Shown: piece after piece, positions 19,757-38,420 of the stretch
Layout of the letters: the number at the start of each line of letters is the position of its first letter
Position numbering within the stretch: position 1 is the first letter of the stretch
NCBI GenBank assembly: GCA_025201845.1
Contig: MU603944.1
Span: forward strand, 1 to 64,000
Direction of reading: 5' to 3'
Origin: Martensiomyces pterosporus
Lineage: Eukaryota; Kickxellomycota; Kickxellomycetes; Kickxellales; Kickxellaceae
Length of the DNA stretch: 64,000 nt
Notes under the pieces: generated by a model
What the model saw: the letters and a program-made list of their open reading frames with translations, nothing else
The model's database searches: none
What the model was told of the DNA's origin: nothing
Position numbers and translations under genes: made by a program

Positions 19757-21223
19757 ATGGATACCGCTATAGGCACGGGGCATGCAACAGCAGCGGCAGC
19801 AGCGGCAGTCAGTCCCCCTAACACAGCGCTACTGTTCCTAGCACAGCACTGGGTGCAGGTTCTTACCAGCGTGCTGGTTTTTCTGGCTACCTACGGCTGG
19901 GTGAAGCGCGTGTACACAGCGCCCTACGCGCCCTCGGCGATATTCGTGCCATCGACATCCGTGTATCCATCCAAGGCATACACAGCAAGGCGCAAAATCC
20001 CCGTGCAGCAATTCCTTGACGACTTCATTCGCGGTCGCATCGAGCTGCGTGACGCGCAATCGGGCCAAGGGATGGAGCATATCACCAACGTCGTGTCGTT
20101 CAAGTTCAGCCCGTCACTCGCGTGGCGGGCGATCCGCGTTTTCCTTGCGACTTCGCACTCGGACCGTAGCGACAAGCGCAATGTGGAGCAGTTCGTACTG
20201 AAGAACGACTCGCTGCTGGAGGAGATCCTGGGGCCCGACAGACTCCCGCTTGTTGGGTATGTCCGCGACGGGATGCCTGAGCAGCTGGAGGAAAGCTTGA
20301 GCGTGCAGATGGAGCGCGTGGGCAAGGAGTACTTGGATCTGAGCCCGACTGACCGTCTCCTGGACGTGAATGCGCAGTGGGGCGATTTGGCTGTGTACCT
20401 GGCTCACGAGTTCCATGTCCCCACGTGTGCAATTGTGGCCACGTCGTCGCAGCTAGCGCATGCGACCAATCTGACCGGGGAGTCTCAGGCACAGAGGTTC
20501 TTGAGGTTTGTCACAGGCGATTATCGCGCAATTGGACAGTGTCTGCCGCCCGGAATACCGCCCTTTACAAAGGCGGTGGCATTTGACACACTGGACACTA
20601 TTGGGCCGAGGAATATTCCGGCGTTTTTGAGATCGGTGAATGAGGTGCTGGAGAGCGGCGGCCGGTTTCTTTTGCAAGTCACCACAACCCCTTCGAGCCT
20701 TGGCTACAAGCCCAAGAAGCACCAGCTTTCTCAGCAGCAGCAGCAATCTGCGGCTAGTATCGGCGGCTCGGCAACTGAGTCACCCTCACCGCAATCTGCA
20801 CAGTATCCTGGCCGCCGTGCGCCAGCTGTGCCATTGAGAAGCGAGGAGAGCATCGCTGATGACGGGAGCGAGCTCAGGATCAGAGGCGAGGAGGAATGGG
20901 CCGAGCACTGGTGGTACCATTTGTTCCGACTGCGCTACATCCAGCCTGGGTCCGACACCAGCGCGTTTGTCAGCATTGAGCAGGTGATGTCTGAGCTGCA
21001 AAGGGCCGGATTCGATGTTCTGCAAGTGGAAAGCCTGACAACGGATGCTGCGCTGACCACAGCCATCTGGTGCAGCCGACTGTGTGCGGCAAAGCGCCAG
21101 ATCGAGATGGAGCTGGGCGAGGAAGCGTACCGCATGTGGGAGCTCTACCTGAACTGGACACAGAGCCTGTATGCGCGCTCTCGGCTCCACAAACACTTTA
21201 TTCTTGCAGTCAAGCGTGCATAG
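19757..21223 (+). CDS. Membrane-anchored methyltransferase-like protein (CFAS / sphingolipid C9-methyltransferase fold)
   Basis: A single exon of 488 residues. One membrane helix is at about 24-46. The Rossmann core begins near residue 200 with the region VGYVRDGMPEQLEESLSVQM followed by RLLDVNAQWGDLAVYLA. The C-terminal part (about 370-488), with RYIQPGSDTSAFV, ELQRAGFDVLQVESL and AYRMWELYLNWTQSLYARS, follows the order of cyclopropane-fatty-acid synthases and fungal sphingolipid C9-methyltransferases. Those methylate lipid substrates with S-adenosylmethionine in the ER. The glycine-rich SAM motif, normally D-x-G-C-G-W-G, is D-V-N-A-Q-W-G here, so two glycines and the cysteine are lost. A Gln/Ser-rich insertion sits at about 315-365. 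It could be a diverged enzyme or a catalytically dead relative. Confidence 0.68.
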   Translation: MDTAIGTGHATAAAAAAVSPPNTALLFLAQHWVQVLTSVLVFLATYGWVKRVYTAPYAPSAIFVPSTSVYPSKAYTARRKIPVQQFLDDFIRGRIELRDAQSGQGMEHITNVVSFKFSPSLAWRAIRVFLATSHSDRSDKRNVEQFVLKNDSLLEEILGPDRLPLVGYVRDGMPEQLEESLSVQMERVGKEYLDLSPTDRLLDVNAQWGDLAVYLAHEFHVPTCAIVATSSQLAHATNLTGESQAQRFLRFVTGDYRAIGQCLPPGIPPFTKAVAFDTLDTIGPRNIPAFLRSVNEVLESGGRFLLQVTTTPSSLGYKPKKHQLSQQQQQSAASIGGSATESPSPQSAQYPGRRAPAVPLRSEESIADDGSELRIRGEEEWAEHWWYHLFRLRYIQPGSDTSAFVSIEQVMSELQRAGFDVLQVESLTTDAALTTAIWCSRLCAAKRQIEMELGEEAYRMWELYLNWTQSLYARSRLHKHFILAVKRA

Positions 21224-21379: not shown

Positions 21380-22063
21380 TACAAAGCATGCCCGTCTGCC
21401 AGCACAAGAGAGGAGGTGGTGCTGTGTGGAAAGGGGCCGCAGAGGAGAGGAGGAGGCCAAGGGAGGTGAATTAAATGGTACTAGAAAGAGCACTACGACG
21501 AAAGAAAGAAAAAGGATATATAAGCTATAGGAGAAGGGCACGTGTGGACATGTTTTGTTCAAGGGGTTGGTGTCTAGGAAGGACAGCGGCTGCGCCGGCG
21601 TTTCTTGCGGCTGGTTCTCGCGCCCTTCTCCATCGCCTGCATGCTGTTTGCACAAGAAGTGGGTGGAAGAGAGCTGATGTGTGCGCCTAAACAACAGAGC
21701 ACACTCCACATGTCAACAGAGGCCTTTGGCTGTATTTTGTGGCGGGAAGAGTGCACGGCGGGCGGAGGGTGCTCAGCGGGCGAGCAAAAGCAACGAGGAT
21801 GGTAAGTGAAGCGGCACGTTGCGCTAAGCCAAAGAAAAAAACCAAAGCCTATCTTGCCACGCATATGCGCGGTTGTCGCTGGAGTTGAGTTGTTGCTGGC
21901 TGGAAAGAGATATGGAGCATGGTATGCACTGCAGGCACCCACGTTGGCTTGCATGGCCACAGCAATGGAGCTCTCTCTACACACATGTCGGGGGGATGCA
22001 GTGTGCGCGAGGCATATAGCGCGGGCGATCCAAGGTTCAGAGCAAAGCAAAAGAGGGTGTGGT

Positions 22064-22083
22064 GGGTGGGTGGGTTGCTGGGG
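22064..22083 (+). other. G-quadruplex motif (C-rich in the KH gene A transcript)
   Basis: Runs G3-T-G3-T-G3-TTGCT-G4 give loops of 1, 1 and 5 bases, a canonical quadruplex pattern. On the - strand, about 450 bases past the KH gene A stop, it reads as CCC repeats spaced by single A, the type of sequence bound by PCBP-like KH proteins. Confidence 0.75.
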
Positions 22084-22533
22084 ACAGTGTGTGCACGTAC
22101 AATCTCAGCTACAGCATCTACAGTTGTCGAAGGGCGGGTGGGAGGGGATGCAAGAAAGGTAGAGGTGAGCGGTTGGGATATGGACAGTGTGAATAAGCAG
22201 CAGGCGGCACACATGGAAAGACGATGGCGCTGCAGCAAAAGAGCGGCATACGCCACAAGCAATAAATGCACCGGAGCAGCAACACATTGGGAGAGGGAGT
22301 CTTACCTCGTTTAGAGTACAGGAGAGCAGGATAAGAGGAGCAAGGGAGGCGTAGTCGGAGGTTGGGAGAGGGGAGCGAAAGCATGTGCGGGCGTGTGTTC
22401 AGAGAAATGGGGGGGGGGCATAAGGGGAGGCGCAAGCGATGCGAACACACGCTCCACGCAAGCAGCTCTAAGAGAGCACCAGGATATATGGAACGAGGCA
22501 GCAGAGGAGAAAGGGGGTGAGGGCATAGGGCGC

Positions 22534-24759
22534 CTATGGTCGCAGCGCAGGCCGCGCCATATCGACCTTGTTCTTTATCATGTAGTAGGCCGAGCGCACC
22601 TGGTCATACCCGCCGGTGATGATGACCAGCCTCTGCTGCGCGCCCTGTGCCGAGTCCTGGATATCGACACGGGCGTTGGTTGTCCGGCGGATCTCATTAA
22701 TTGTCTCTCCCCGCCGGCCAATGACGGCTCCAATCTTATCGCTCGGCACATAGATTTGCTGAATTGTCTGCCCCGAGGCATCGCCTGGCATTCCCCCAGA
22801 GCCAGCGGCTGAGCTGGCGCCTCCAAGGCCGCCACCTCCAAGGCCGCCACCTCCAAGACCGCCGCCCGCGCTGCCGCCGCCAGACATAGGCGCCTGAGGC
22901 ATCTGTGGGCGACCACCACGGGGCGCATAGGGCCGGGGCTGGTATCCGCCAGAGGGCTGGGCTGGGCGGCCACTGTACATGTTCTGCATTGGAGCGGCTG
23001 TGTACCCGTAGCTAACGGGAGCAGGGAATTGATATGGTGAGGGCGCAGCGTTGTAGCCGCTGGTGTAAGGGCTGGCTGCAGGAACAGGTGCTGCGCCAGA
23101 TATGCTACCACCGTAGCGAGAGTTGGGCGGTCCGGCGGCGACGGCGGCGCCAGCTGCCTGCGTGCCATATGCCGGATAGCCACTTGCTGCAGGAACGGCG
23201 TAGCCGTAGCTCATGGCTGGCGCAGCTCCAGCTCTGGCACCTCCGGGCTGGCTGGGCATGCGGAAGCTGGGCTGGCCGGGAGAGGGTCCAGGGCCGGTGT
23301 TGCCAATCGGCGTGCGGTTGACATTGCTCATGCTGCCAGGCCCACGGCTGCGCCCGCCTTGGCGGTCGTTATGTCTGTTGTACCTGTCATGTCGGTCACG
23401 GTTGTTGTTGCTGGGTTTGTTATAGTTCCGGGCGTTGCTGTTGTTGTTGCTGTTGTTGTTGTATCCGCCATTGTTGTTGCGGTATCCATTGCCTCTATTG
23501 TGCCCATGGCTGCTGTTGCCAATGTTTGGGTCATGGCCACGGTTGCCCTGGTGGCTGTCGGTGTGGCCCTGGCGTTTGCCATCCTTGCGCTTGCGGCTCT
23601 GGGTCTCCACAGTCATCGCAGATGGCAGATTTGCAGCAGGCACATAGTAGTCTGCGCTGTTGTAAGCCGCCATATCCTTGGTAAGTGCCTCAGCGATAAG
23701 CTTTATCGCCTTTTGGATGGATGGCGGCGTGCCCACAAGCTCAACAATGCGTTCCGAGGAGCGTGGGAGCGTGGATTCGGAGGTGTGGATGTTGACAGTG
23801 GACGTGTCGCGGATGTTGTTGATGGTCTTGCCGCCATGCCCCATGATGCTGCCAACGCACTTGTGGGGAACCAGGATGCGGAGCGTAATCTTGGAGCCAC
23901 TGTCCTTGGATGGCGTTTCCTTTGCCTTTGAATCGGCTGTCTTGCTCGCACCAGAGTCCTTGTCCGTGTCCTTGTCGGTAGCACCATCGGCATCACCATC
24001 AGCGGCAGCATCGGGATCAGCAGCAGGGCTAGTCTCCTCGGCAGCAGCGACCTCCTTCTCCGCCGCCTGCCTAGCCGCACTCATCTTAATGGCCAGCATC
24101 CCCTCGGCAATGTGCAAGTAGGCAGTCGCAACGTTGGCGATCGGGCCCTTGATAACCAGAACGCGGTCGACGACAATGTCGGGGTCATCCTTGCCCGCAA
24201 CGATTGAAATCGAGGCTCCGGTTTGCTCTTCGAGCTCCTCCTTCTTCCCCTCCTCATGCTCAAAGATGACCTCAACATCCTTGCGAGTTACCACCGCGCG
24301 GATAGTAAAGCTGTCAAGCGCGGTGTGGCCCTTCTTCACGGCAACTGGCCCGCTGTCCTGTGCTGCTGGCGCAGCAGCAATGCGCTTGGCTGAGTGCTCT
24401 TTCTCCTCCTTCTCGTCCTCGGACCACTCTGCATCAACGTGGAGCTTGAAATCGTCGCCAGCACTGTCGTTCTTCTCGGTGTTGCTCTTCTTGTCGCCCT
24501 TTGACGTCCTGCGCGGCCTCTTGTTTTTGCCACTCGCAGTCTTGCCACCGGTCTCCTGAACAGGCGTAGCTGGCGAGTTGGAGTCTCTGCTAGATTCGTC
24601 GCTGTCATCCTGGCTCTTGGCTTGAGATTGCTTTTGGGCTGGCGCACGCGAATTCTCGCTTGCCTCGTGCCGAGCATCAGCGACCTCAGAGGGGCTGCCG
24701 CTTCCCTCATCAGGAGTAGCGGAAATCGCATACAAATCGGGGCTGCCTCCATCCGACAT
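22534..24759 (-). CDS. KH gene A: three-KH RNA-binding protein (Hek2/PCBP-like)
   Basis: A single exon of 741 residues, read from an ATG at 24759. An acidic/basic disordered N-terminus covers 1-145. A first KH-like fold is at about 149-225 (DSFTIRAVVTRKDVEVIFEH) in which the GxxG loop is missing. KH2 is at about 290-360 with ITLRILVPHKCVGSIMGHGG and a normal GHGG loop (307-310). A long Gly/Asn/Tyr/Pro-rich linker of prion-like composition follows, then KH3 at about 664-735 with IYVPSDKIGAVIGRRGETI and a normal GRRG loop. The order matches fungal Hek2/Khd1 and Rnc1 and animal PCBPs, which bind C- or CNN-rich RNA and control mRNA localisation, stability and translation. Binding to C-rich RNA is inferred from the family. 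It shares a 508-base divergent promoter with CSN4 and lies near two more KH genes. Confidence 0.9.
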   Translation of the reverse strand: MSDGGSPDLYAISATPDEGSGSPSEVADARHEASENSRAPAQKQSQAKSQDDSDESSRDSNSPATPVQETGGKTASGKNKRPRRTSKGDKKSNTEKNDSAGDDFKLHVDAEWSEDEKEEKEHSAKRIAAAPAAQDSGPVAVKKGHTALDSFTIRAVVTRKDVEVIFEHEEGKKEELEEQTGASISIVAGKDDPDIVVDRVLVIKGPIANVATAYLHIAEGMLAIKMSAARQAAEKEVAAAEETSPAADPDAAADGDADGATDKDTDKDSGASKTADSKAKETPSKDSGSKITLRILVPHKCVGSIMGHGGKTINNIRDTSTVNIHTSESTLPRSSERIVELVGTPPSIQKAIKLIAEALTKDMAAYNSADYYVPAANLPSAMTVETQSRKRKDGKRQGHTDSHQGNRGHDPNIGNSSHGHNRGNGYRNNNGGYNNNSNNNSNARNYNKPSNNNRDRHDRYNRHNDRQGGRSRGPGSMSNVNRTPIGNTGPGPSPGQPSFRMPSQPGGARAGAAPAMSYGYAVPAASGYPAYGTQAAGAAVAAGPPNSRYGGSISGAAPVPAASPYTSGYNAAPSPYQFPAPVSYGYTAAPMQNMYSGRPAQPSGGYQPRPYAPRGGRPQMPQAPMSGGGSAGGGLGGGGLGGGGLGGASSAAGSGGMPGDASGQTIQQIYVPSDKIGAVIGRRGETINEIRRTTNARVDIQDSAQGAQQRLVIITGGYDQVRSAYYMIKNKVDMARPALRP
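22819..22864 (-). repeat. 15-base tandem repeat encoding Gly-Gly-Gly-Gly-Leu units
   Basis: About three copies of a 15-base unit (CCTCCAAGGCCGCCA on +) inside the KH gene A linker encode the GGGGL repeats just before KH3. The copies are nearly identical at the DNA level, which suggests recent slippage. Confidence 0.8.
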
Positions 24760-25267
24760 GTTTATTATTTATAGCCTGCGTTATAGTAGAATCAAACCTC
24801 GTGTGTGTGCGGGGGGCGCGCGAATGTGTATGCTTTGTTTTTAGTAATAGAAAGCAGAATAAAGGAAGGCTCGAGTAAACGAGAGGCGCGTGTAGATATT
24901 TCTTTTTGTGTGCAAATGAGATCAGCAGGGGGAACAGAGCAAGATTGCAGCAGGGCGCATAGAGAGAAGAGCGCTGGAATCGACACGGCTCCAGCGCCAG
25001 ACCCACGCCAGCGCCTTTGCGTCTCCTTTGGTGAGCCACAGGCCAATAGCATCCGCGCACGTGATCCCAATGGCGCGAAACATAGCGCCAGCCCTTCGCT
25101 CGGCGCGCTTGCTTCAGCTGCGCCTGGCCCTGCTGCTTACGTCTCTGCTAGCCCACACCCGCCCTTTAGAGGAGCACACTTTCTGTTTTTTCTTCGCATT
25201 TCAGCATCCCTCTTGCACTGCTCGTTTTTTGTGTTTGAGACAGGCTACTGTGAAGGCTACGATCAAA
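24760..25267. promoter_or_regulatory. Divergent promoter of KH gene A (-) and CSN4 (+)
   Basis: 508 bases between two start codons. They contain CCAAT boxes at 25043-25047 and 25067-25071 flanking a palindromic CACGTG E-box at 25058-25063, and an AT-rich patch just upstream of the KH gene A start (about 24760-24790). The CCAAT/E-box group lies 200-225 bases from the CSN4 ATG. Function is inferred from motif type. The CSN4 frame is open upstream to 25028 but lacks an ATG. Confidence 0.5.
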
Positions 25268-26611
25268 ATGAGTCAGGTCGCAAAGCTTGCCGAGAGCATA
25301 AACGCCCAGTTCCGCGGAGAGTCTTTGAGCGAGGACAGCTCAGTGCCCGTCGAGGAGTTCCTTCTGTCCAAGCTCGCTGCGCATCGCCGGTGTGTGCCAG
25401 TGCCACAGCAGCAAGAGGCGCAAAAGGAGCTGCTTGTCAACATCATCGACGCATGTCTCAGCGAGCAGGTCATCCTCGCAAACTCACGCGTGGTTTTGCA
25501 CAAGCTAGTGCACATCCTCGAGGAGCAAAAGGACCACCTCAGCAACGACACGCAGGCCAAGGTGCTGCGGTACCTCTTGGACAAGATTCGCCAAAGACTG
25601 TCATCATACGAGGGCGTGATTTTTGATGCCATCGACAGGCTGGCAGCTGTGCTGGAGGAGGACGAGCTGTGGGAGGAGGCTGCGCGCCAGCTGCAGAGCA
25701 TTCAGTTTGAGCGCTCCCAGAGACAGTATGACGCGGATTACAAGTTCAAGGTGTATGTGCATACGATGGAGCTGTTTTTGATGGCCGAGAAGCCAGAGCT
25801 TGCCACGTCGAGCCTGAACCGCGCCGCTGCGCTGCTGCCGGAGATCCAGGATAAGCACCTGATTATCAGGTACCGTTTCTGCCAGGCACGCATCCTCGAC
25901 TCCATAAACAACTACATTGAGGCGGCTACAGCGTACCAGAACGTCGGCCAGTCGGAAGCGCTGCCCAAGGAGCAGCGCAACATGGCGATGGCATCAGCCA
26001 TCAACTGCGCGGTTCTGGCGTCGGCTGGCCCGCAGAGAGTGCGCGTTCTGTCCAGACTGTACCACGACAAGCTGGCCTCCGACATCCCGACGTTTAGCCT
26101 GCTGGAGAAGATGTTTTTGAAGCGGCTGATCAAGCCCGATGAGTTCAGGCAGTTTGAGGAGGGCCTGGAGCCCCACCAGCGCGCCCTGCTGCCCGACGGC
26201 AAGACCACCAAGCTGACGCGCGCCGTGCGTGAGCACAACATGCTTGTCCTCTCGTCGCTGTACTCGAACATCAAGTTTGAGAACCTGGGTCGCTCGCTGG
26301 ACATGGACGCCGATGCGGCAGAGGAGATGTGCGCAACGATGATTGCGGAGGGCCGAATGAAGGGCCGAATTGACCAGATTGAGAGCGCCATCACCTTCGA
26401 CGGCGCTCGCGAGGTGAAGGAAGTCACTGCTGCCATCTCGATGAAGAAGGTGGCCTCGGAGCAGCCGCCTCCCATGTACCTGCGCGAGACCGTGGCTGCC
26501 AAATGGGACCAGCGCATCATGGGTCTGTGCCAGAACATTGAGGATGCGGTGGACAAGCTGATAGAGCGCCAGCCGGTGTATGCCAGGGCGCTGTTCAGGA
26601 ACACCAATTAG
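25268..26611 (+). CDS. CSN4: COP9 signalosome subunit 4
   Basis: A single exon of 447 residues, starting at the first in-frame ATG (MSQVAKLAESINAQF). The N-terminal two-thirds is a helical-repeat solenoid (KLVHILEEQKDHLSNDTQAK, LWEEAARQLQSIQFE, RYRFCQARILDSINNYIEAA). It is followed by a PCI winged-helix module at about 300-385 (AVREHNMLVLSSLYSNI, FENLGRSLDMDADAAEEM, IAEGRMKGRIDQIE) and a C-terminal helix. Length and motif order fit CSN4 rather than the proteasome lid paralogue Rpn5. The COP9 signalosome removes NEDD8 from cullins and controls cullin-RING ubiquitin ligases in nucleus and cytoplasm. The F-box protein at 46.5-47.8 kb could be a client-type component, but there is no evidence of a direct link. 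Confidence 0.93.
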   Translation: MSQVAKLAESINAQFRGESLSEDSSVPVEEFLLSKLAAHRRCVPVPQQQEAQKELLVNIIDACLSEQVILANSRVVLHKLVHILEEQKDHLSNDTQAKVLRYLLDKIRQRLSSYEGVIFDAIDRLAAVLEEDELWEEAARQLQSIQFERSQRQYDADYKFKVYVHTMELFLMAEKPELATSSLNRAAALLPEIQDKHLIIRYRFCQARILDSINNYIEAATAYQNVGQSEALPKEQRNMAMASAINCAVLASAGPQRVRVLSRLYHDKLASDIPTFSLLEKMFLKRLIKPDEFRQFEEGLEPHQRALLPDGKTTKLTRAVREHNMLVLSSLYSNIKFENLGRSLDMDADAAEEMCATMIAEGRMKGRIDQIESAITFDGAREVKEVTAAISMKKVASEQPPPMYLRETVAAKWDQRIMGLCQNIEDAVDKLIERQPVYARALFRNTN

Positions 26612-26844
26612 CAGACAGGCTGGCTGCGCGGGCACCCTGCAAGAGCAAAGGACATGCAAATGTCTGCCAAGGGGCTCCATGCGCACGCTACGTGGTTACT
26701 TGTTTATTTGTTTTGGTTTGTGTGTATGTATGAGACATGTAAATGGAGGGCGGCCGAAAGTAAAGAAAAATAAGTTAGGATGGTGGTGGCAGAAGGACAG
26801 GACAATTCTTCGGCCTTCCTTTTGGCGCAGCCTACAGCCTTGGC

Positions 26845-29161
26845 TCACTGCTCCAGGTCCTCAAAGCTCCGCACGCTGTCTCTAATCAGCCTGCACGCAG
26901 TGGTCACTTTGTCTGGCCGGCCAACAATGGTGACGATGCGATCAGACATGTTCTCGACGCGCGGCGACAGCTGGATGTGCGTGCCACTACGGTCCTGCAG
27001 AAGCGCCAGGTGGGTCCCGTTGCGGCCGATCAAACGACCAGCAACGCGATCGGGGATAACCAATTTCTCCTCCCTCTCCCTGCCATTGCCACTGCTGCTG
27101 CCATGACCGCCACGCCTGCTGCTGCTGATGCTGATGCCCATGCTGCTGTGGCTGCCACGCAGTGAGGATGATGGTGAGTGTCTTCTTGGGCGGGTGCTGG
27201 ATCCACTGCGGGGCCTAGAGGAGTCGCCTTTGCCGCGGTCGCTGTTGTTGTCCGACAGACGACGAGCGCGCTTATGCGCCGATGAAGAGGCGGCCGCTGA
27301 GCCATCGGCCGAGTCAGCATGCCCGAGGCCAAGCATTGAACGCGAGCGCTTCCTGCTGCCCTCGCCGCCAGCACTCAGGTGCGACGTGGGTGTCGAGGAA
27401 GCGGTTGCAAGTCTTGCCGAATCATGCGAATCGGCCGAGTTGGCGGGCCGCTGGTTGATGGCAAGGAACTGGCGCAGCCCGTCTCTCACTGGCTTGTACA
27501 GCGTCGATGACTCCTGCAGCTGCGTAAGGTTTGACTTTGTGTGCTTCAGCAGCCACGCCGATGCTGTTTCCATTCCCTGTGCAGTGGCGCCTACCTCAAC
27601 AATGCGCTCCTGGGTGAACGGGATGGTGCTCTTGTAGATGTGCAGGCGGTGGATGCCTGGCTCCGTCCGCAGTTTCTGGACGTAGGAGCCTCCGGGTCCG
27701 ACGATGGCCCCGACGCACTTGAATGGGAACAGGAAACGCAGGGTGAGTGTTTTGGCGTTCGGTTCGGTGTCGGCTGTGGCCGCGCTCTTGGACTGCTCGC
27801 ACAGGTGCTTGGCCAGCTCGCGAACCCCCTGTTATTTTGTTTGTTCGGTAGATGTGGAAAGAGGACAAGGTAGGGAGGGCATGGCGAAGTAAGTAAACAT
27901 GGCGTGTGTTTGTGTGTGGATGGGTGGTGGTGGGGAGTGCAGGGCATCGAAGAGCGAGCTTGGTGAAGAGGGAGGGAGGGGTGGAGGGGTGGGGATGGAT
28001 TTTGGCTACCGCCGACAATACGGCGCAATAAAGCAAAACAAAGCACGATCTCTCCACACTGAGGGGAAGTGCCCCAATAGAATAAGCAAGCAAGCAAACA
28101 AACAGACAAGCAGGCAGGCAGGCAGGCAGGCAGACAAGGACCGCATCTCAAGGCGACGCTGCTTGTCTTGTATGCGGGGAAGGCGCCCCCATGGCACGAT
28201 CGAGAAATGGTGCGGGGAAGCTACTGGAGAACTGCAGAGCACGCTTGCTGTGTATGAAGACAAGTGGAGACATGTAGAACTGCACTTACATCTGCAATGC
28301 TGCCAATAGACCCGCGCAGTATGACGACCCGATCCTCGTGGTTTGTGTTATTGCTCGTAATAAACCAAGTGGCCGACGACGCCTCCTTGAGCTTATTGAT
28401 GTACCGGCCCTCCTTGCCGATCAAGACGCCGCCGTCCTCATGAGGGAACAGAAGCCTCAGCGTAAGCTCCTTGTCTCCAGCTGACGACACTGGGGATGGC
28501 GATGGCGAGCGAGACAGCGAGCTGCGCTTGCTGTTGCGCAGCGACCCCGAGTCACCAGTTGCTGTGGAGCTCACGCTGTCCCTTTCGCTGGCGTCGCTGT
28601 GGCTTAGCGCGTCTTCCTCCTCGTCAGGGGTTTCTTCAATGTCTACCTGCAAAGAACCGGGTAATATACACAAAGGGCGCATGTGTACATCAGCAGCGAA
28701 TGTGAGCGAGTGATGTGCCGCGCATTGCGACAAAGGGGCGGTGGGAGGACAGCACCCCGCAGCCGTGTACAGGTTCATTCAAGCCATGTTTGGAAATCAA
28801 TTAATGTATGGCACCCGTTTGCTACTGAAGCAGCAAGTGCGCCGCCATCGCTTGGCGTAGCAGGCAAATTCCTTTCTGCCACAGCACCCGCTGAGCACCG
28901 AGCTTTTCGCCAGGGTGCACAGAGCAGAAGGCGCCGCGGCAAAGGCGCTTTGCATAGATGCGAACAGCCCACCCAGTGCTGCGTTCAGCGCATGCCAGGG
29001 GGAGGAGGCGGGTGTGTATGCCAAACCAGTCACGAGCAGGATAGCCGGTGGTTGTTACCTAGAGCCATGTCAGAAAGGCTGTAATCGTCGTCGCCGTGCT
29101 GCGCCGTGGCATTAGGCTTTGGTGCCGGTGTGTGCGGCTCTTTGTCGGCAAGACAAATCAT
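26845..29161 (-). CDS. KH gene B: three-KH RNA-binding protein (Rnc1/PCBP-like)
   Basis: Three exons on the - strand: 29161-29059, 28642-28290 and 27828-26845, giving 479 residues. Exon 1 is short; it begins at an ATG (MICLADKE) and ends SLSDMAL. KH1 is at about 93-163 (LRLLFPHEDGGVLIGKEG, GKEG at 110-113), split by intron 2 after residue 152. KH2 is at about 178-250 (LRFLFPFKCVGAIVGPGG, GPGG at 195-198). A basic Ser/Arg-rich linker precedes KH3 at about 404-475 (KLVIPDRVAGRLIGRNG). All three GxxG loops are intact, so canonical RNA binding is likely. The exon 1-2 junction requires the second AG of a GCAGGTAG tandem acceptor; the first would give a stop within three codons. KH1 and KH2 are most similar to KH gene C, which lies head-to-head. 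Exon 1 is the least certain part; an alternative ATG at 28778 opens the KH1 exon directly. Confidence 0.83.
27829..28289 (-). other. KH gene B intron 2 (inside KH1)
   Basis: The donor GTAAGT lies at 28289 and the acceptor ATAACAG ends at 27829, phase 0. The sense strand is C-rich: CCCC and CCC runs at 27994-27970 and CCCCACCACCACCC at 27935-27922, 95-165 bases before the acceptor. A CAAG/CAGG microsatellite lies at 28083-28138. The intron interrupts KH1 at the same residue as the KH gene C intron. Confidence 0.85.
28083..28138. repeat. Tetranucleotide microsatellite, CAAG then CAGG
   Basis: CAAG/CAAA units grade into six or so perfect CAGG units within KH gene B intron 2. It is a simple slippage repeat and likely variable between isolates. 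Confidence 0.9.
28643..29058 (-). other. KH gene B intron 1 (416 bases)
   Basis: The donor AG/GTAACA is at 29058 and the acceptor is the tandem GCAGGTAG ending at 28643. Phase 1 at both ends supports the pairing. No other exon is apparent inside. Confidence 0.6.
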
Positions 29162-30318
29162 GGCTGTGCTTGAGAAACAGGATGTGAGTGTGTCGTGAGA
29201 GAGGGAAGGCCAGGGCCGAAAACAATGCTATGTGTGGTGGCAGGGAAAAGAAAACAGATCCGCGGTGTGCTGCTGTTATAGGAGAGGTGCAGAGGCGGGG
29301 AGAAGAGAGAAAGTGGAGAGAGCGCGAGTGGAGAAGAGGGGGGCGCGGAGAGACGGGCTGTTTGAGCTGAGGCGTATATGAAGCTGTGTGCAGGGCAGCA
29401 TAGAGTGGAATGAGAAAAATCGAAGCAGCCTTGTGCAACTCATGCGAGGGCAGAGGCAATACAAAACCATATTGCACCCCATGTCCTTTTCTCCATCTCT
29501 CCACACTTTCCTTTTCCTCCAGCAGCGTCACACCAAGGCTCCTGCTCTTTTCTTGTGCCAGATGCGGGAGGGCTGGGTGTCTGTCAGCGACAGCGCAGTC
29601 CCCCAGCTAATAATAGACGTGCGTGGGGGCGGCCATGTGAGGATCTGAGCTAGGCTCTCGCATGTCTGGACGGGCTGGGAGTATGGCTGGAGCAGCCTCG
29701 AGCTAGCCGGCTGGGCAGCGAGGTGTTTGTGCCAGCGCTGCTGCCCTGGCCGCAGAAGCTGCCAGTCTCATAAACGTGGATGCAAGTGGGTGCGGATGCT
29801 CCGGAGAGGGGAGAAGGCCCGCAAATGCGGCCCACCCACTCCACATGTGCGCACGCTAGCCTTGTCTGCTCTCCCGCACCCCTGCTTGAGCAGCAGAGGC
29901 GGACCGCTGAGGAGATACATGGGATGTGTGTGTTGGCAGCTGGCGAGCCGAGCCAATTTGGCTTGGATGCGGCTCGCCTGCAGGAAATGCAGCCCGCATT
30001 TTGGTTCGGTAGCAGCCGCAAGCGGGTGAGAATGAGTGGCTCCACCGCACCGAGTTCCACCAAGGAGGACGGGAAAAGAGAGCCTTGGGTCCTCCCTCCT
30101 CTCTCTGCCTCCTTGTGATCACATCTCATACGCCTAGAGCAAAAAGGGCCTTTTAGGAACAAGACGCGTGTTTTTCCAAGAGCACAGGCTTTTTTTTTTT
30201 ATCTCCACCTAATTTGCTTGCCCTGCTTGTTTACTTTACTCGCGCTCGAAACGCAGCTTTTTGCCTCGCTCGGCTCCCGCACCCAATCCTCTTATCACTT
30301 GCGTTTTAGTTATCAGCC
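29162..30318. promoter_or_regulatory. Divergent promoter between KH genes B and C
   Basis: 1,157 bases separate the start codons of the two paralogous KH genes. On the KH gene B side (about 29290-29380) the + strand is a nearly pure purine tract, so the KH gene B leader would be pyrimidine-rich. On the KH gene C side a T10-type run (30189-30199) and a TC-rich leader precede the ATG. No ORF inside has recognisable content. A shared or mirrored control region is an inference from the arrangement. Confidence 0.5.
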
Positions 30319-33300
30319 ATGAGCGACGGGCCAAAGCGCTTCTCGCTCTCCGATTACCAAAGCAAGCGAGGGCATGCAAGGCCCGTCGAGGCCCTGCTGC
30401 CCAATGAGCAGAAGAACGAGCTGGAGGAGCTCCACATGCTCCTGGGCACTGGCGTGGCCAATAGCAGCTCTGGTCAGATTGACGACGTTCTGCGCACGCC
30501 CGGTGCCTCGCCAGACAACGGCGAGGGCCAAGGCGAATCTGGCAATCCCGGCGGAACTGACAATGAGGAAGGCGAGGATGTCGAAATGGGCGATAAACAG
30601 GAGAATGGCGGGCGCCGCGGCGACAGCAAGCGCGATGGAAGAGATGGCAAGGGCCGTGGTCGCCGCCGTAGGCGCAGCAGACGCAGCCGGTCGCCCCGGT
30701 CGCGTTCCCGCTCGCGCTCGCCCTCCAAGTCCCGCAAGTCGAGGACACGCTCCGACTCGCACTCGAGCGGCGAGGACCGCTCGCGTAGCCGCAGTGGCCG
30801 CTCGCAGCGCAAGAGACACGACCAGCAGCGCAGCAACAGGTCGCGGTCCCCGTCGAGAGACAAGATCAGCATGCGCTGCGTCTTCCCGTACGAGGACGGC
30901 GGCATCATTATTGGCCTGCGCGGCGCGCACCTCACGAAGCTGCGCAGAACGACGCCCACAGTCGACTGGCGCATCTCTAACGAGACCAACGACAGACAAG
31001 ACCGCATCCTCGTGGTGCGGGGCTCTGTCAAGCATGTCTCTCAGGTACGTTGTTTTGCCGGGTTTGCTCTTGCCTGATTTCTCTGCAGCTCCCGCTACCT
31101 GCCTGCTCTGTTTTTTTTCCTTGCAAGCACGCCTCACAGGGTGCTCTTCTGGCGCTTGCCCGCCCCCATTCCTGCCCCCAAATGCAAGCAGCCATTTTTG
31201 TGGCCAGAAATCACCGCATTTTGCAGAGGCTGTTCCTGTTTTGGGCGAATGGCTCCGAGGCTTCTGCGTTCAAAATATGTGCTCTGGTTGTTGGATGCAA
31301 GCCAGCGCAAGGCCAGCTGCTGCGAAACCCCTCCTCCTGGCCCCTCCCGCCACTCCCAGGATTGCGTGTGCTGCGTTCTTTTCGCCATGCCTCATCTGTT
31401 TGCGAGTGCCTCCCGCTGCTGCCAAGGGTGTGCGAGGAGCTGGCGGCCTCTGCAGTGCCTCCTGGTTCATATGGCTCCCATATGAGCTGCGAGGAGGGCG
31501 AGGGGGAGAGCGACCATTGCAGTGATTGATATGAACACCAGTAGCAACTGACTTGCGCCGTGGTCCAAGAGCCTCGAGCCTCGAGCCCAAAGTGGCCAGG
31601 GCCGCCGCAGTCCATTTCCCCAAGCACCTCCATCATCTTGCCTTCTCTGCACTCGCCTCACACCTTCAGAAATTCACCGCTGCCTCCACTTCGATGCGCT
31701 GTTATCTGCAAGCCAGCCAGCTCTGTCTTCGTCCTTGGCTATGTCTGTGCCAAGCACCCTCCAGAAGCTATTCCACCAGATGCCACCCAAGACTACAACA
31801 CAAGGCACTTCATTCACTCACACGTCTTCCGCACCAGCGCCACTGCAACGGGCAGCACTGAGCAGGGGATGAGAGGCGCGCTGTCCATGCTGTCCACCTG
31901 ATCCCTAGGCCAGCGCCCTTCTCGTCCTCTCTGCCAGCCCAGCTGCCACGCACGCGCTGCCTTGCTTCTTGTTTCTCCCAGTCTATCTCATCAGTGTGTG
32001 CTCATCGCTCTATCTTTAAGCCGCTACTATCTGCGGCCATGCAATCCCTGCTTCTTGTGCTCTCTACAGCCATACTGCCTTCTGCTTCATGCCTTGCCTT
32101 GCCTGCTACCGCTACCCTCTACCCCACCACCCACCCACCCACATTCACACGTACTTCGTGCACATACAGCGCCATAACTTGCCTACCCAAAGCACCCGTC
32201 AGCGCTAACTCTTTCTTCGTCACCTTCATTCTCTACCCATGCCCTGCTTCCGTCTGCATCTTCACCCCAGTCTAGGCGTTCAAAGAACTTGCCGAGCACT
32301 TCATCTCGCAGGGAATGCACGTCGACTACCCGCCGCAAATGCGCGGCCGCGGATCCAAGGAGGTGGACACCAGCAAGCCGTTCGTGCCGATCCGCCTCCT
32401 CATCCCGCACAAAACCTGTGGAGCCATCATCGGGCAAAAGAGCGAAACGCTCATAAACACCCGTGTCAACTGCGCTGCCCGCCGCGTGTATGTGTACCGC
32501 GAGCGCATTGCAGATAGCCGCGAGAGGGTGGTGGAGATTGTTGGCACTCCAGAGTCAGTCGAGAAGGTCATTGAGGTTCTGGGCGAGCAAGTCGCCCGCA
32601 CCCTGACCAGCGACCAGATGGAGTCCGACCCCTACGTGCCCGAGCGCGATGGGCTGCGCAGGTTCTTGAGCAAGCAGGGCGTGCCCAGATCCCGCGTCAG
32701 CCTGGAGCCTATCAAGCCTGTCGAGAAGAGCAGCAAGTCGTCGGCTTCATCCTCCTCTAAGAAGAGCGGGTCCGGCAGGAGGAGCCGCTCCAGGTCGTCG
32801 TCTGGGTCAAGATCTAGGTCCAGCTCGAGGAGTCGCTCCAGAAGCCGCTCGCGCTCGCGCTCACCATCGCGTAGCCGCAAACGCCGCAGCAGGCGCCATA
32901 GCAGGCGCTCGCGCTCCAGGTCGCGCTCAAGATCTCGCTCAAGATCCCGCTCTTACTCGAGATCAAAATCGCGCAGGAGCAGGCGTAGCCGCCATCGCAG
33001 GTCGCGCACGAGCAGGGACGACAGTCGCGATAGGAGCAGAAGCAGAAGCAGAAGCAGAAGCAGGAGCAAGAGCAAAAGTAAGAGCAGGAGTGGAAGTAGG
33101 GGCCGTAGCAAGAGTGCGAGCAGAAGCAGAAGTAGGAGCAGAAGCAGAAGCCATGACAGGAGGAGAAGGAGGAGAGGAGCCACCAGCGGCAGCAGCAAGC
33201 ACCGCGACCCAAAGAAGCAGAATGGCGGGTCGTCGAGCAAGCCGAGCAAACCGCGTGTGTCTGACGTCGAGATGAAGGACGCAGAGGAGCACGAGGGCGG

Positions 33301-33499
33301 AGAGGATGCTGCGCAGGTGAATGGGGACAGCGCTGCTATGAATGCGGGCTCGGTGGGTCCAAAGCAGCCGGCTGGTGGTTCTCAGAACTACTCTGGGTGG
33401 GAGGACGAGAGCGTGTCGAATGCTAGCGATGCTGACGCGTCGAAGAACAGTGAGGGGTGGGGCACGGATCGCAGCGCGCTGGGCGGTGGATCGTGGTAG
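30319..33499 (+). CDS. KH gene C: two-KH, RS-rich RNA-binding protein
   Basis: Two exons, 30319-31044 and 32276-33499, joined in phase 0 to give 649 residues. The N-terminus includes SLSD and an acidic patch, then a first RS/RG-rich block (about 108-178). KH1 is at about 181-252 (MRCVFPYEDGGIIIGLRG, GLRG at 199-202), split by the intron after residue 242. KH2 is at about 279-352 (IRLLIPHKTCGAIIGQKS) with the loop GQKS (295-298) instead of GxxG. A long second RS domain (about 395-540) is followed by an acidic, Trp-containing tail. RS domains are typical of nuclear splicing proteins and are phosphorylated by SR kinases; PCBP-like KH domains bind C-rich RNA. A nuclear pre-mRNA role is therefore inferred. 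It is the divergently oriented paralogue of KH gene B with an identical intron position, but has lost (or never had) the third KH. Confidence 0.87.
31045..32275 (+). other. KH gene C intron (1,231 bases, inside KH1)
   Basis: The donor is CAG/GTACGT at 31045 and the acceptor CAGTCTAG ends at 32275. Reading through gives a stop after about ten codons. The 3' part is C/T-rich, with CCCCACCACCCACCCACCC at 32122-32140, about 135-153 bases before the acceptor. No further exon with recognisable sequence was found despite the length. Confidence 0.85.
32122..32140 (+). other. C-rich tract (quadruplex motif on the - strand) in KH gene C intron
   Basis: Runs of 4, 3, 3 and 3 C separated by ACCA, A and A. 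This is a canonical i-motif/quadruplex pattern and a plausible PCBP-type binding site in the pre-mRNA. It closely resembles the tract of KH gene B intron 2 at 27935-27922. Confidence 0.75.
32740..33180 (+). repeat. Arg-Ser coding low-complexity block of KH gene C
   Basis: It encodes the C-terminal RS domain. Two codon dialects are visible: a CGC/TCG-type part (to about 32960) and an AGA/AGC purine part with hexanucleotide repetition (about 33020-33160). This suggests the second half expanded by hexamer slippage. Confidence 0.8.
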
Positions 33500-34352
33500 C
33501 TCAATGGCTCTGCTCTGATCTTCCTTCGCTCATTTTCTTTCCCACCTCAATGCTTTGCCTTCTCTTTTTATGGTAGGTGTAACCACGTATTTATGAATGC
33601 TTAATACATGTTCCGTGAGCACTCGCCACTCGTGGCCACAGAAGTGCACCAGACCAGTGGCCATGCTGAAGAGAAGAAAGCCATGGGTGCGCAGACGCGG
33701 ATTTCTGATCAGGTGCATGTATCACTAGTGGGGATGTAAAAGCACTAGCGGCTGTGTAATGCCGGCATTTACATGGTATTGTGTGTTTCCGATTTCCCTC
33801 TATTGTATTGCTCATTCTCATTCTCGTTCTCATTCTCGTTTCACACTCGCTCTCAAGGCACGTCCAATGGTCCCTCATCCGCCTGCCCAAGCAGCAAGAG
33901 GGCCAGTCAAGAAACACTGAACCCGATCTGTGCTGTTCGTCATTCTTAGCATGACCAAAAGGGCTATCAGGAGAACAGCGTGATAAGGGTTCGGCTTGGA
34001 AAGACCAGCATGTGTACAAGCCTCGTCTTTGTGCTCCCAGAATAAGAACGATATCAAGAAGCGACTACTGATGGTCATGGTGATGGTGGTGATGGTGGTG
34101 GTGGTGATGGTGATTCCTGCCATGTTGTGACGTGTAGCACCCAGCTCTGCCGCATGCTGGTTCTGTTGTTTCCTCGCCACCTTCTTTTTGTTTCCAGTCC
34201 TAAGAGCGTATATCCACTTGCCCGCCATCTCTCATCCTCCTTGCATCCAGGTTTCTTTCGCCGGCCCCGAGCGTGCACGCACATACTGCCGCTGCCACGC
34301 GTCGACGCAAACAAGCACTCACATTGCACATTAACGTGTAGGACATCACGCC
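33500..34352. other. Intergenic region, KH gene C to MIOS
   Basis: 853 bases with no recognisable gene. It holds a CATTCT/CATTCTCG hexamer run (33811-33842) and a GGT/GAT trinucleotide repeat (34069-34115). The last 100 bases are pyrimidine-rich ahead of the candidate MIOS start. Confidence 0.5.
34069..34115. repeat. Trinucleotide microsatellite (GGT/GAT)
   Basis: An imperfect run of ATGGTG and GTGGTG units upstream of MIOS, non-coding. Confidence 0.85.
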
Positions 34353-37300
34353 ATGTCAGGTGCCGGTTCGACGCCGGTGGAGTGGATGCTGTCGTTCAGT
34401 TTTCTGTCCTCGCCGCGGAAAGGCACACTCGCTGCCAATGCAGACGATGGCAGGGAGAGCACACGATTACTGGGTAACGAAAACCAGCATATGCGTAGTA
34501 TGCAGGTGTCAAGGTGCCTTGCCCGCACTACGCGCACACTGCCTTGTCGGCTCGCTGCCTGCACTGACTTGCCAGCCGCGGCTCGCGCTCAAGCATGTAC
34601 CACATTCTATGCTGTGCTTACCTCATGCATCTCTCCTTGGCTGCTTGCCGCTTCATTTCACTGCTATTTTTCCTCTGCCCAACCACTTCGCTTCAGCAGA
34701 CTGCAGCCTAAAAATTAACAACTAATTCCCACATCTTTTCACAGTTCACACGTTCCTTTCTGCGCCTTTCCTTTTCTAGAGGCTGTCGACACAGCAGCAC
34801 CAAAAGCCAGAAACAGCGAAAAGGACAAAGGCGAAATGGCCATGCGCAGAGTGCCCGTAATGAGCTGGGTCCAGCCCGACTCTGGGTGCAAATTCGTCGT
34901 GGGCAACGACTCCGGGCTTCGCCTGTATCGCATTTCACCGAGCCATGTAAGCGTCTGCTCCACACGCGTGCGAAGTAGACAGCGAGCAGCTTCGCATGCC
35001 GTTCTCAGCCAAGCGCCTTGTTGTGTGCGCACGCTACTCACTGCGGCGTTTTTGTTGTTTCCTTTGTTGCTGTAGAATGACGGCAGCGTTGAGCCAAAGT
35101 TTGACATGGTCGAGTTCCGGCCCATGCGCCACGCAGCGACAGCCATCGCAGCGTACCCGCGCACACTGGAACAGTCGAGCGTCATGGCTGTTGGCAATTC
35201 GGTTGGCGAGGTAGGGCTGCACTTCTACTCGTCGCAGGAGACCAGCGATCCAGACAGCTTGAGTGTCCCGCCGAGCGTTGGTGTCTACGAGGCATCAGGG
35301 AGGGTGTGTCGCGAGATGGCGTTTAATCCCGAACACAACGACCTGCTCGCGTGTGGATTTGACCACAAGGAAGGGCACCCTAGCTTGCACATCTATGATA
35401 TTACGCGCAATGCCGATGTTCGCCAGCTGCTGGGCACACAGTCGACACCCTGGTCCACGTATAGCGAGAGCTTGGACCACGTTTATGAGGGATCGCAGAT
35501 TTTGTCGCAGCGCAGCCATGCAAGACAGTTGTCAGCAGGCTCGGGTGGCTCCTCGCGCCCCGATAGGGAGGGCGAGTATGGCCCGGCACACAGCGGCTCG
35601 GGCGTGACGTCGCTGAGCTGGATCCCGGGCTCCGTGGACGATATCCTGGTGGCATCGAAAAAGACCAGGTGCTCAATCCGGTGGTACGACCTGCGCGCGC
35701 GCAACAGCGGCGAGACCTTCCTGTACATAGCCAACCCCGGTAAAGGCCCAGGCGACTCGGGGTGTTCGACGGCAGGCACGGTGTATGATTTGCAGTTCGA
35801 CCCGTTTAACCGCGTCCGGTATATGGCCCACGACCGATGTGGAATCGTCAACATGTGGGATATTCGCTGGGCCACGCAGCCCATTCACACATTCGACATT
35901 GGAAAGAAAAACATTGCCAGGATGCGGTACTCGCCGCGGAGGAGCGGCGTTATTGCGGCGTTGGCGGCCAGCTCCAGCGCACTCGACATCTTCACTGTCC
36001 ATGAGTACAGCAATGGCAAGATTGTGGAGGGCGGGCGGTTTGCGGCAAACACGTTTTTGGACGACGCCAGAATGAAGGAACGGTATGACGACGACCGGGC
36101 TGCATTGGTTTCGGCGTCGCCACCCAAAGGCCTGCATGTGTGGACCAGACACACGGCTGCAGTGCCTACGCAGGCTATGGCTGGCGAGCAGAACAGCATG
36201 TTCCTGTGGATACCGCCTGTGGTCTCGAGCAAGGCATCGCATGGACAGCAGCTCATTACCTGGAGTAATAGCGACGCGCCGCGTGCGGTTGGCTTGCCCA
36301 TACCGAGGGTGGCTGCGTTTAATTGTCGTGGCGACATGGCGATTTCAAACAACTGGAGCAGGCTTGGAGACATGGTCCCCAGCTCGGACACGGAGATGTC
36401 GATGTTCCATATTGGCGTCGCAGAGTTCCGCGAGCTTGCGTTGGACCGTGCTGCAAGGCACGCTCATGCTATGCGCGAGGCATCAGCGGAGCCGGCGGGC
36501 AGAAGGCCATCTGCACCCATTCAGCAGCGGCGGCAGAGTGCAGTGGCGGCCAACAGCTTGCTTGCGCGTAGATACCAGGCGGCTAGACAGCAGAGTCTGG
36601 ATGGCAGCATGAAGGCGCAGCAGCTTAGCGACACACTGATTGCCATGAATCTCAATATCAGCAGCGGCCAAACGGCTTCCGGTGCAGGCGCAAAGACATC
36701 GTCGCCGCTGCTATATGAGCGGCTTGCGTCGGGAGCCGTGGTGTATGACCCGTCGACCGACGATGGCCGTGTGCCGGGCGATGATCGTGTGGAGGCTGCG
36801 TTGGCAGGCGACATCCTTGTGCAGATGCGCCGGCGCGTTATGCAGGGATATGGCATAAATGCGGACAAGAACACGCGGATATTCAGTCGCGACTCTCCGA
36901 TCAGTGATCTGTGGCAGTGGATTAGGGATGCAGACATAAGAAGGCACGACGGATCTTTCTTCGTTGCGTCTCGCGTGGACGCCAGCTTCTACGGCATATA
37001 CGATATCATGAAGCTCAAGAAGAAGCAGCTCAACTACCTGTACGAGCACTCGTCCTCGGCGGCTCTTAAGCGAAGGCCTGTTATCAGGGCCAAGTCAAAG
37101 CTCAATAGGCAGCGACGTCTGGCGCTGCAGCATTGCGGGTGGGGTCTAGAGGGATATGTGCGCGAGCAGCACATCATGGCGTTGGAGCATGCGGGTGAGT
37201 ACTCGAGAGCTGCCGGTGCGTCTTTTGTCTATGGCGACCATGAGCGGTGTCTGCAGTCCCTGGAGCAGAGCACGGCGCAGGACCAGAAGCTCCTGTCGTT

Positions 37301-38420
37301 TATGCTCAAGGCGCAGATGAGCGAGACCAGCAGGCTGGCGCGTGCGTTTTCAGGAAATAAGGACGCGGCGCCAGGCGATATGTTTGCGTGCCCCCACCTG
37401 CAGATGATATTCATGTACCTGGTCACTGGCGACTGGAACACAGTCATCGAGAATATGGGCAGATTGCCACTGAGCCACCGCTTGGCAGTGGCGCTGAGGT
37501 ATTTGGACGATGCTAGCTTGATGCGCTATCTGAGGCGTGTGTGCAGGCTGGCTGTGCGCAGTGGCGGGCTGGATGGTCTTATTGTGACGGGAATCGCCAG
37601 CTACGGGATGCTGGTGCTGGGCCAGTACGTCGACGACACGGCGGATGTGCAGACAGCCGCGCTGGTGGCGACGTTTGATCCCGAGGGCAACTTGGCGGCC
37701 GGTGAGCCTGCGGAGAGGTGGATCTATGCGTACCGCCATCTGCTGAACAAGTGGCGCATGTTCACGACAAGGTGTTTGTTTGATATCGCACATGGGAATA
37801 GACGCGAGCTGAAGGGGCTGCCGCGGATGTCCAAGGTTGGCCAGGAGATCTCGATCCGGCCGGCCGACGTGCGGTGCACGTTCTGCCACCAGAGCCTAGG
37901 CTACGACGTCAACAAGCAGCGTGCAGCAGCACGGCGTGGCGGTGTGTCGCTGTCTGATCGAGTTGGCGGTTCCATTGGCGCTGGCGGCGGCGGCGGGCCT
38001 GGGGTTGGCGGTGTGCATGGCGGCAATAAAAACAGCGGTGGATCTGGCGGCGACATGCGCGGAGTGCACTCGGGGGCTGTGGCACAGTCGCGTGTGGCCC
38101 CGCCTGGATCGGGCGCTGGTGAGCCGGCGAGAAAGCAGCCGCAGCCGTCGCAGACGCGGTTGCTGTATACGCACTGCCCCAAGTGCAGCAACAGCCTGCC
38201 GCGGTGTGTGGTGTGCCGCATGACTCTGGGCACGCCTGTGGTGTCACCTGGCACTGAGAGCGACTCGGCCGTGGCAACGGGCGGCGAGTTCTCGCAGTGG
38301 TTTTCGTGGTGCCAGACGTGCGGGCATGGCGGCCATGTCTCGCACCTGAAGAGCTGGTTCTCGACCCACGCCGAGTGCCCCATTCCTGGATGCAGCTGCG
38401 AGTGCGAAAAGAGCTGCTAG
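34353..38420 (+). CDS. MIOS/Sea4, WD-repeat and zinc-finger subunit of GATOR2 (SEACAT)
   Basis: Exons 34353-34473, 34780-34946 and 35076-38420, with phases 1 and 0 matching, give 1,210 residues. Exon 2 onward shows the MIOS pattern: VMSWVQPDSGCKFVVGND, then beta-propeller repeats (FNPEHNDLLACGFDH, SLSWIPGSVDDILVASKK, GIVNMWDIRW), a helical solenoid, and a C-terminal zinc region. That region begins RCTFCHQSLG (about 1028), continues CPKCSNSLPRCVVCRM, and ends WCQTCGHGGHVSHLKSWF with CPIPGCSCEC. GATOR2 sits at the vacuole/lysosome and counters GATOR1, so it promotes TORC1 activation by amino acids. Exon 1 (40 residues) rests on phase, splice signals and an ATG; if it is wrong, the start is the ATG at 34836 in exon 2, which fits the usual MIOS N-terminus well. 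A Gly-rich insertion splits the zinc region. Confidence 0.88.

What the first reader, a model, noticed from the sequence alone, without database searches (positions are those of the whole stretch)
22534..33499. Cluster of three PCBP-like KH genes, two as a head-to-head duplicate with the same intron
Three genes encoding PCBP/Hek2-type KH proteins lie within 11 kb, with only CSN4 between them. Genes B (-) and C (+) are divergent neighbours. In each an intron interrupts KH1 exactly six residues after the conserved R-G-S, in phase 0, and the downstream halves align (GVRELAKHL versus AFKELAEHF). Both N-termini also carry a SLSD segment. Shared intron position plus inverted neighbour orientation points to an inverted duplication followed by specialisation: B kept KH3, C has RS regions and a damaged KH2 loop. 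A physical KH family cluster like this is unfamiliar to me.
Basis: partly seen in the sequence, partly recalled or inferred. Interest (0 to 1): 0.75.

Follow-up and report, generated by a model that had tools for sequence, protein, structure and literature searches.

The report
Old head-to-head duplicated RNA-binding genes
In a small fungal genome, two neighbouring genes for RNA-binding proteins are most likely ancient back-to-back copies of one another that have since changed at very different speeds; the arrangement is real and its linkage is shared with related fungi, but it is a fairly ordinary product of gene duplication.

Summary
Order: A(-), CSN4(+), B(-), C(+), in a 17.4-Mb fungal genome of Kickxellales affinity. 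B and C share an intron in KH1 at the same codon, phase 0; A and the genome's other PCBP-like gene (contig C52) read through there. Over KH1-KH2, B and C match each other best among five KH proteins of this genome (113 bits; others at most 61.6). They group in a 41-row tree (99/98), and share a one-residue insertion in KH2 and a short element after it that A and C52-type proteins lack. Linkage: 15 contigs of relatives carry at least two of the three genes, 4 all three; order and orientation there were not seen. Corrections: A is not shown to belong to the B/C duplication; SLSD is not a B-family feature; C's GxxS loop is in 25 of 25 C proteins, so not recent damage; no C protein (0 of 25) shows a KH3. 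The split is old, probably before Kickxellales and Harpellales parted (not settled). Most likely: an ancient inverted tandem duplication, with C a slowly evolving RS-rich two-KH protein and B a fast-evolving three-KH PCBP-like protein. Functions are inferred, not tested.

The parts
22534..24759 (-). gene A: 741-aa protein with three KH domains, single exon; KH1 lacks GxxG
25268..26608 (+). CSN4 homologue between A and B (PCI and PSMD12-CSN4_N domains)
26845..27828 (-). gene B exon 3: end of KH1, KH2, YKPVRDGL element, linker, KH3, stop
27829..28289 (-). gene B intron 2 (461 bp, GTAAGT...CAG, phase 0) inside the last helix of KH1
28290..28642 (-). gene B exon 2: most of KH1 (GKEG loop)
28643..29058 (-). 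gene B intron 1 (416 bp, phase 1; acceptor read as GGTAG|AC, chosen to keep the frame)
29059..29161 (-). gene B exon 1, start MICLADKEP, contains YSLSDM
   Evidence: similar starts MISLA in P0001, P0002
29162..30318 (.). 1157 bp between the B and C start codons, divergent arrangement; no Rfam match at E up to 1, no Pfam match over cut-off in its four longest frames that lie inside it or nearly so
30319..31044 (+). gene C exon 1: conserved N-terminus KRFSLSDYQSKR and ELEELHMLLG, RS-rich stretch, most of KH1 (GLRG loop)
31045..32275 (+). gene C intron (1231 bp, GTACGT...TCTAG, phase 0) at the same KH1 codon as B intron 2
32276..33499 (+). gene C exon 2: end of KH1, KH2 with GQKS loop, YVPERDGL element, RS-rich tail, stop
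27466..27498 (-). B side of a 33-nt inverted DNA match (73%) that covers the Y-x-P-x-R-D-G-L-R element; the C side is 32633-32665 (+)

Best explanation
B and C are ancient inverted tandem (head-to-head) duplicates of a PCBP/hnRNP K-like gene that already had an intron in the last helix of KH1. Shown: homology, sister grouping, shared rare characters, conserved linkage. Inferred: the ancestor had three KH domains and C lost KH3; the duplication predates the Kickxellales-Harpellales split. Afterwards the copies diverged unequally. C became a slowly evolving RS-rich two-KH protein, with RNA contact left mainly to KH1 (GxxG kept) and KH2 kept as a folded GxxS scaffold; by its RS stretches it most likely acts in the nucleus on pre-mRNA (inference). 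B kept three GxxG KH domains and evolves fast, as a PCBP-like mRNA-binding protein (inference). A is an older PCBP-like paralogue that lies beside them.
Against: The support comes from KH1: KH2 alone puts A with B (91/77, not starred), though B+C is not rejected (p 0.356); KH1 alone does not reject A+B (p 0.097). The program warns of long branches that meet in these trees, and A+B is rejected only narrowly (p 0.044). Exon by exon, C52 is the best single row for both B and C in the whole genome. The AU test does not settle whether the split predates Smittium (p 0.078). No B was listed for Mycoemilia or Smittium, nor for several Coemansia with A or C listed (C. reversa, C. guatemalensis, C. biformis, C. 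interrupta, sp. RSA 1365, RSA 988, Benny D115); one search scored only the 7991 candidates sharing most words. In Mycoemilia A and C lie on different contigs (338796 and 72969). The Dipsacomyces B model P0001 is spliced near but not at the site. Order and orientation in relatives were not seen. No transcripts; no test of RNA binding, location or splicing.
Confidence: 0.82

Rival explanations
1. Late duplication: B arose from C inside Kickxellales, evolved fast and gained KH3 from another KH gene.
For: Of the 29 close B hits 28 bear Kickxellales names and one is unnamed (order of Coemansia, Linderina and Kickxella recalled); joining B to all C rows but Smittium is not rejected (p 0.078).
Against: None of 25 C proteins shows a KH3 at the threshold used, at least four of them partial or shortened models, so B would have had to acquire one; B joined to the nine Coemansia-type C rows is rejected (p 0.013); B is outside all C rows in the tree.
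Confidence: 0.15
2. B is a mosaic: KH1 from a C-like gene, KH2 and KH3 from an A-like gene next door.
For: KH2 of B is on average nearer to A (33.1%) than to C (27.3%); the KH2-only tree joins A and B (91/77); B KH3 lies near A KH3 and the C11 domains (87/78).
Against: B and C, not A, share the extra residue in KH2 and the element just after KH2; KH2 alone does not reject B+C (p 0.356).
Confidence: 0.07
3. The shared intron is older than the whole PCBP family and says nothing special on B and C; both are old separate clades that happen to be neighbours.
For: Intron positions of animal PCBP genes and of other fungi could not be read here.
Against: A and the C52 gene have no intron there; B and C share other characters and group in the tree.
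Confidence: 0.05
4. All three genes A, B, C come from one local expansion.
For: The concatenated tree puts A beside B+C against X and PCBP2, weakly (86/56); A is linked to B or C in relatives.
Against: In the single-domain tree A KH1 and A KH2 go with X (95/77 and 85/75); A has no intron at the site, no KH2 insertion, no post-KH2 element; A and C are on different contigs in Mycoemilia.
Confidence: 0.2

Closest known systems
PCBP2/hnRNP K-type triple-KH proteins (human PCBP2; fungal C52-type, P0030-P0032)
   Different: B and C have one more residue in KH2 (29 against 28) and the post-KH2 element; C lacks KH3 and has GxxS in KH2
IGF2BP/IMP KH1-KH2 tandem
   Different: 15 and 19% identity; Pfam finds no RRM and no fourth KH in B or C
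SR proteins (defined by RRM plus RS domain in the abstract of PMC3173450)
   Same: C has RS-rich stretches on both sides of its RNA-binding part
   Different: KH domains in place of RRMs; Pfam finds only KH_1 in C
KHNYN extended-diKH (PMC11997328, passages read)
   Same: di-KH with one domain lacking GxxG
   Different: there KH1 lost the loop and no RNA binding was detected; in C it is KH2 and KH1 keeps GxxG; no sequence comparison was made

Membership tests
Inverted tandem duplicate pair (B, C) | each is the other's nearest paralogue in the genome | tested here: met
   five own-genome proteins compared: 113 bits against at most 61.6. Exon by exon over the whole genome C52 is the best single row, since B and C meet in two pieces
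Inverted tandem duplicate pair (B, C) | neighbours in opposite orientation with no gene between | tested here: met
   1157 bp between start codons; four spacer frames scanned with Pfam, none over cut-off; no Rfam match
Inverted tandem duplicate pair (B, C) | shared intron position | tested here: met
   splice sites by sequence only
Inverted tandem duplicate pair (B, C) | sister relationship in a tree with outgroups | tested here: met
   99/98; KH2 alone leans to A+B without rejecting B+C
Inverted tandem duplicate pair (B, C) | same order and orientation in relatives | not testable with these tools
   only shared contig lengths and names
Triple-KH PCBP/hnRNP K type: gene B | three type I KH domains | tested here: met
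   29 of 30 B proteins, the other partial
Triple-KH PCBP/hnRNP K type: gene B | GxxG in each KH | tested here: met
   GKEG, GPGG, GRNG
Triple-KH PCBP/hnRNP K type: gene B | poly(C) binding | not testable with these tools
   none
Triple-KH PCBP/hnRNP K type: gene C | three type I KH domains | tested here: not met
   two KH in own C; no KH3 in 25 of 25 C proteins, some of them partial
Triple-KH PCBP/hnRNP K type: gene C | GxxG in KH2 | tested here: not met
   GxxS in 25 of 25
Hek2/Rnc1/Pbp2 orthologues | nearest relative of named yeast Hek2, Rnc1 or Pbp2 | not tested
   no named yeast sequence was in hand; source names such as 'PAB1 binding protein' were not checked
SR protein: gene C | RRM | tested here: not met
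SR protein: gene C | RS-rich domain | tested here: met
   108 RS/SR dipeptides in 649 aa; per 100 residues 3.8-17.1 in 25 C proteins, 1.6-4.4 in 30 B

The most novel reading that the evidence does not exclude
C defines a Kickxellomycota-specific kind of splicing regulator built on KH domains instead of RRMs: RS-KH1-KH2(GxxS)-RS, in which KH2 has become a protein-binding scaffold under strong constraint, and it is kept head-to-head with its fast-evolving paralogue B because the two share a promoter region and regulate each other, with the long 1231-bp intron of C (in-frame stop at codon 11 if retained) as a self-limiting switch.
Probability: 0.15. Interest if true: 0.55.

Novelty: new variant of a known kind. 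Interest (0 to 1): 0.35.

Why it matters
It gives a clean case of unequal evolution after an old inverted duplication: over KH1+KH2 this genome's C is 82-88% identical to 8 Coemansia rows, its B only 49-58% to 7. It also shows an RS-rich KH protein with one loop fixed as GxxS in both fungal classes sampled (25 of 25 proteins; classes). Neither overturns a known principle.

Tried and rejected
SLSD as shared ancestry: rejected, 3 of 30 B proteins against 21 of 25 C. 'Damaged' KH2 as decay: rejected, GxxS in 25 of 25 C. Mosaic B: considered because KH2 alone leans to A; made unlikely. A known structured RNA in the cluster (22000-34500): no Rfam match at E up to 1. A hidden gene in the B-C spacer: four frames scanned with Pfam, one match at E 0.099 far under its cut-off; no homologue search was made for them. 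DNA trace of the inversion: eight inverted pairs of 20 bases or more in 26700-33600, one of them the RDGL element, the rest not followed up.

Papers: (Kickxellales + KH domain) found 0 papers. Searches (97 papers, 12 listed; 3; 2; 357, 12 listed; 2; 17, 10 listed) showed nothing on this cluster or on the B and C families in the titles and abstract beginnings listed; unlisted papers were not seen and the library holds open-licence papers only. I saw listings for these, five passages of PMC11997328, and the abstract and outline of PMC3173450. Recalled, from no call: FUBP-like for C11, what Hek2/Rnc1/Pbp2 look like, poison-intron control of SR genes, the order of Coemansia, Linderina and Kickxella.

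Limits: DNA of relatives was not obtained. Scans of metagenome contigs were capped at 0; genome contigs holds bacteria and archaea; viral contigs was not tried; G000 has no relatives in the genome tool. Gene order in relatives therefore rests on equal contig lengths with equal organism names. The KH1+KH2 tree has 41 rows (11 A, 13 B, 12 C, 5 others), of which 36 of the 97 returned proteins, the rest own genes and PCBP2; rows were picked for spread; P0033 and the C11 protein were left out. The domain tree has 70 domains of 26 proteins. Structure alignments used 17 of 24 C and 21 of 29 B proteins. The label 'Kickxellaceae C' means this genome and eight Coemansia rows; NCBI puts Mycoemilia in Kickxellaceae too. 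Some groups were named after the tree had been seen.

Against linkage: different contigs for A and C in Mycoemilia (339 and 73 kb), Coemansia sp. RSA 988 (32 and 18 kb), C. interrupta (58 and 12 kb), C. guatemalensis (6 and 12 kb) and C. biformis (4 and 10 kb), and three contigs of 3-9 kb for A, B and C of sp. RSA 1933; only in Mycoemilia are both contigs long.
Full report
What is there. The window is part of contig C16 of a 17.4-Mb, 216-contig genome; homologues place it in Kickxellales, nearest to Dipsacomyces (55% for B, 66% for A). Gene A (24759-22534, minus) is one exon and codes for 741 aa with three KH domains. CSN4 follows on the plus strand. Gene B (minus) has three exons and 479 aa with three KH domains; gene C (plus) has two exons and 649 aa with two KH domains and RS-rich stretches on both sides. 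1157 bp lie between their start codons, with no Rfam match and no Pfam match over cut-off in the four frames scanned.

The intron. B intron 2 (461 bp) and the C intron (1231 bp) are both GT-AG, phase 0, and cut the last helix of KH1 at the same column of a locally gap-free alignment. A and the C52 gene read through that site. Relatives support it without DNA: partial models P0028 (B, Coemansia sp. RSA 2399) and P0053 (C, Coemansia erecta) begin exactly at the exon start; the Linderina models P0002 and P0005 differ by an extra stretch exactly there, which I read as a retained intron; P0046 uses the same acceptor with another donor; P0055 and P0056 begin at what would be the first methionine of exon 2. 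The Dipsacomyces B model P0001 drops four residues around the site, so it is close but not exact.

Relationship. Among five KH proteins of this genome, B and C are each other's best match over KH1-KH2 and the next 45 residues (113 bits; with B or C as query the others give at most 61.6). Exon by exon over the whole genome, C52 gives the best single row for both (52.1 and 55.9 bits), because B and C meet in two pieces (45.2 and 44.2; 53.8 and 39.6 bits). In a tree of 41 rows B+C has 99/98, with B, C and A each one clade; the program warns that long branches meet. AU tests reject A+B (p 0.044), A+C, B+X and C+X. The signal comes mainly from KH1 (100/99.5; A+B not rejected, p 0.097); KH2 alone leans to A+B (91/77) without rejecting B+C (p 0.356). 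Two characters outside that tree speak for B+C: the distance from the GxxG loop to the ER of strand 3 in KH2 is 29 in 29 of 30 B (30 in one) and 25 of 25 C, but 28 in 39 of 39 anchored A (1 of 40 not anchored), 4 of 4 C52-type proteins and PCBP2; and an element Y-x-P-x-[RKQESH]-[DNHS]-G-[LIF], just after KH2 where I looked, is in 28 of 30 B and 25 of 25 C, but 0 of 40 A and 0 of 7 others, one of which (PCBP2) is a fragment that ends before it. Of the two B exceptions, P0002 skips the stretch in its model (P0005 of the same species has it) and P0029 has a one-residue variant.

Age and direction. None of 25 C proteins shows a KH3, including Mycoemilia and Smittium; 22 hold KH1 and KH2, and some models are partial. 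B KH3 groups with A KH3, C52-type KH3 and the C11 KH domains (90/86). So the ancestor most likely had three, C lost KH3, and the duplication is older than the Kickxellales-Harpellales split. The tree agrees (B outside all C); B with only Coemansia-type C is rejected (p 0.013), B with all C but Smittium is not (p 0.078). No B was listed for Mycoemilia, Smittium or several Coemansia that have A or C listed, so this remains inference.

Linkage. Comparing the longest-contig lengths listed for 39 A, 29 B and 24 C proteins, 15 lengths are shared between families with the same organism name (in one case both unnamed): 4 hold A, B and C, 6 hold A and B, 3 hold A and C, 2 hold B and C. A and B share an 8169-bp contig in Coemansia erecta; A and C of C. 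reversa have locus tags 93760 and 93763, which leaves room for two genes between. In Mycoemilia A and C are on different long contigs.

The own-genome gene that groups with the fungal PCBP-type outgroups is on contig C52. A is a separate PCBP-like paralogue; its place is unresolved. SLSD is not a B-family feature. The C KH2 loop is GxxS in 25 of 25 C proteins, a fixed feature. A too has one degenerate KH: its KH1 loop fits GxxG in 1 of 38 A proteins that hold KH1.

Verdict. A real, well-supported, old inverted duplication with conserved linkage; biologically tidy, not surprising in kind. The RS-KH-KH(GxxS) make-up of C is the least ordinary part.

Noticed in passing
22534-24759: KH1 of gene A lacks GxxG (EHEE), and so do 37 of the 38 A proteins that hold KH1, this one included.
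   Followed up: partly
31045-32275: The C intron is 1231 bp, long beside the two B introns (416 and 461 bp); retention would give an in-frame stop at codon 11.
   Followed up: partly
30319-30450: C carries a conserved N-terminus, [ST]LSDYxSxR-like and ELEELxxLLG-like, also seen in Smittium and Mycoemilia; role unknown.
   Followed up: no
35103-38417: MIOS-like protein (zinc_ribbon_16, MIOS alpha-solenoid) downstream of C.
   Followed up: no
19757-21220: CMAS-type methyltransferase (cyclopropane synthetase family) beyond gene A.
   Followed up: no
L008:984-2024: Contig C212 of the same genome codes for a KH plus AKAP7 2'5' RNA ligase-like protein, by recall the ASCC1 type.
   Followed up: no
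P0097 (Coemansia sp. Benny D115): A 1106-aa model joins A KH1 to a C-terminal part without KH; probably a fused gene model.
   Followed up: no
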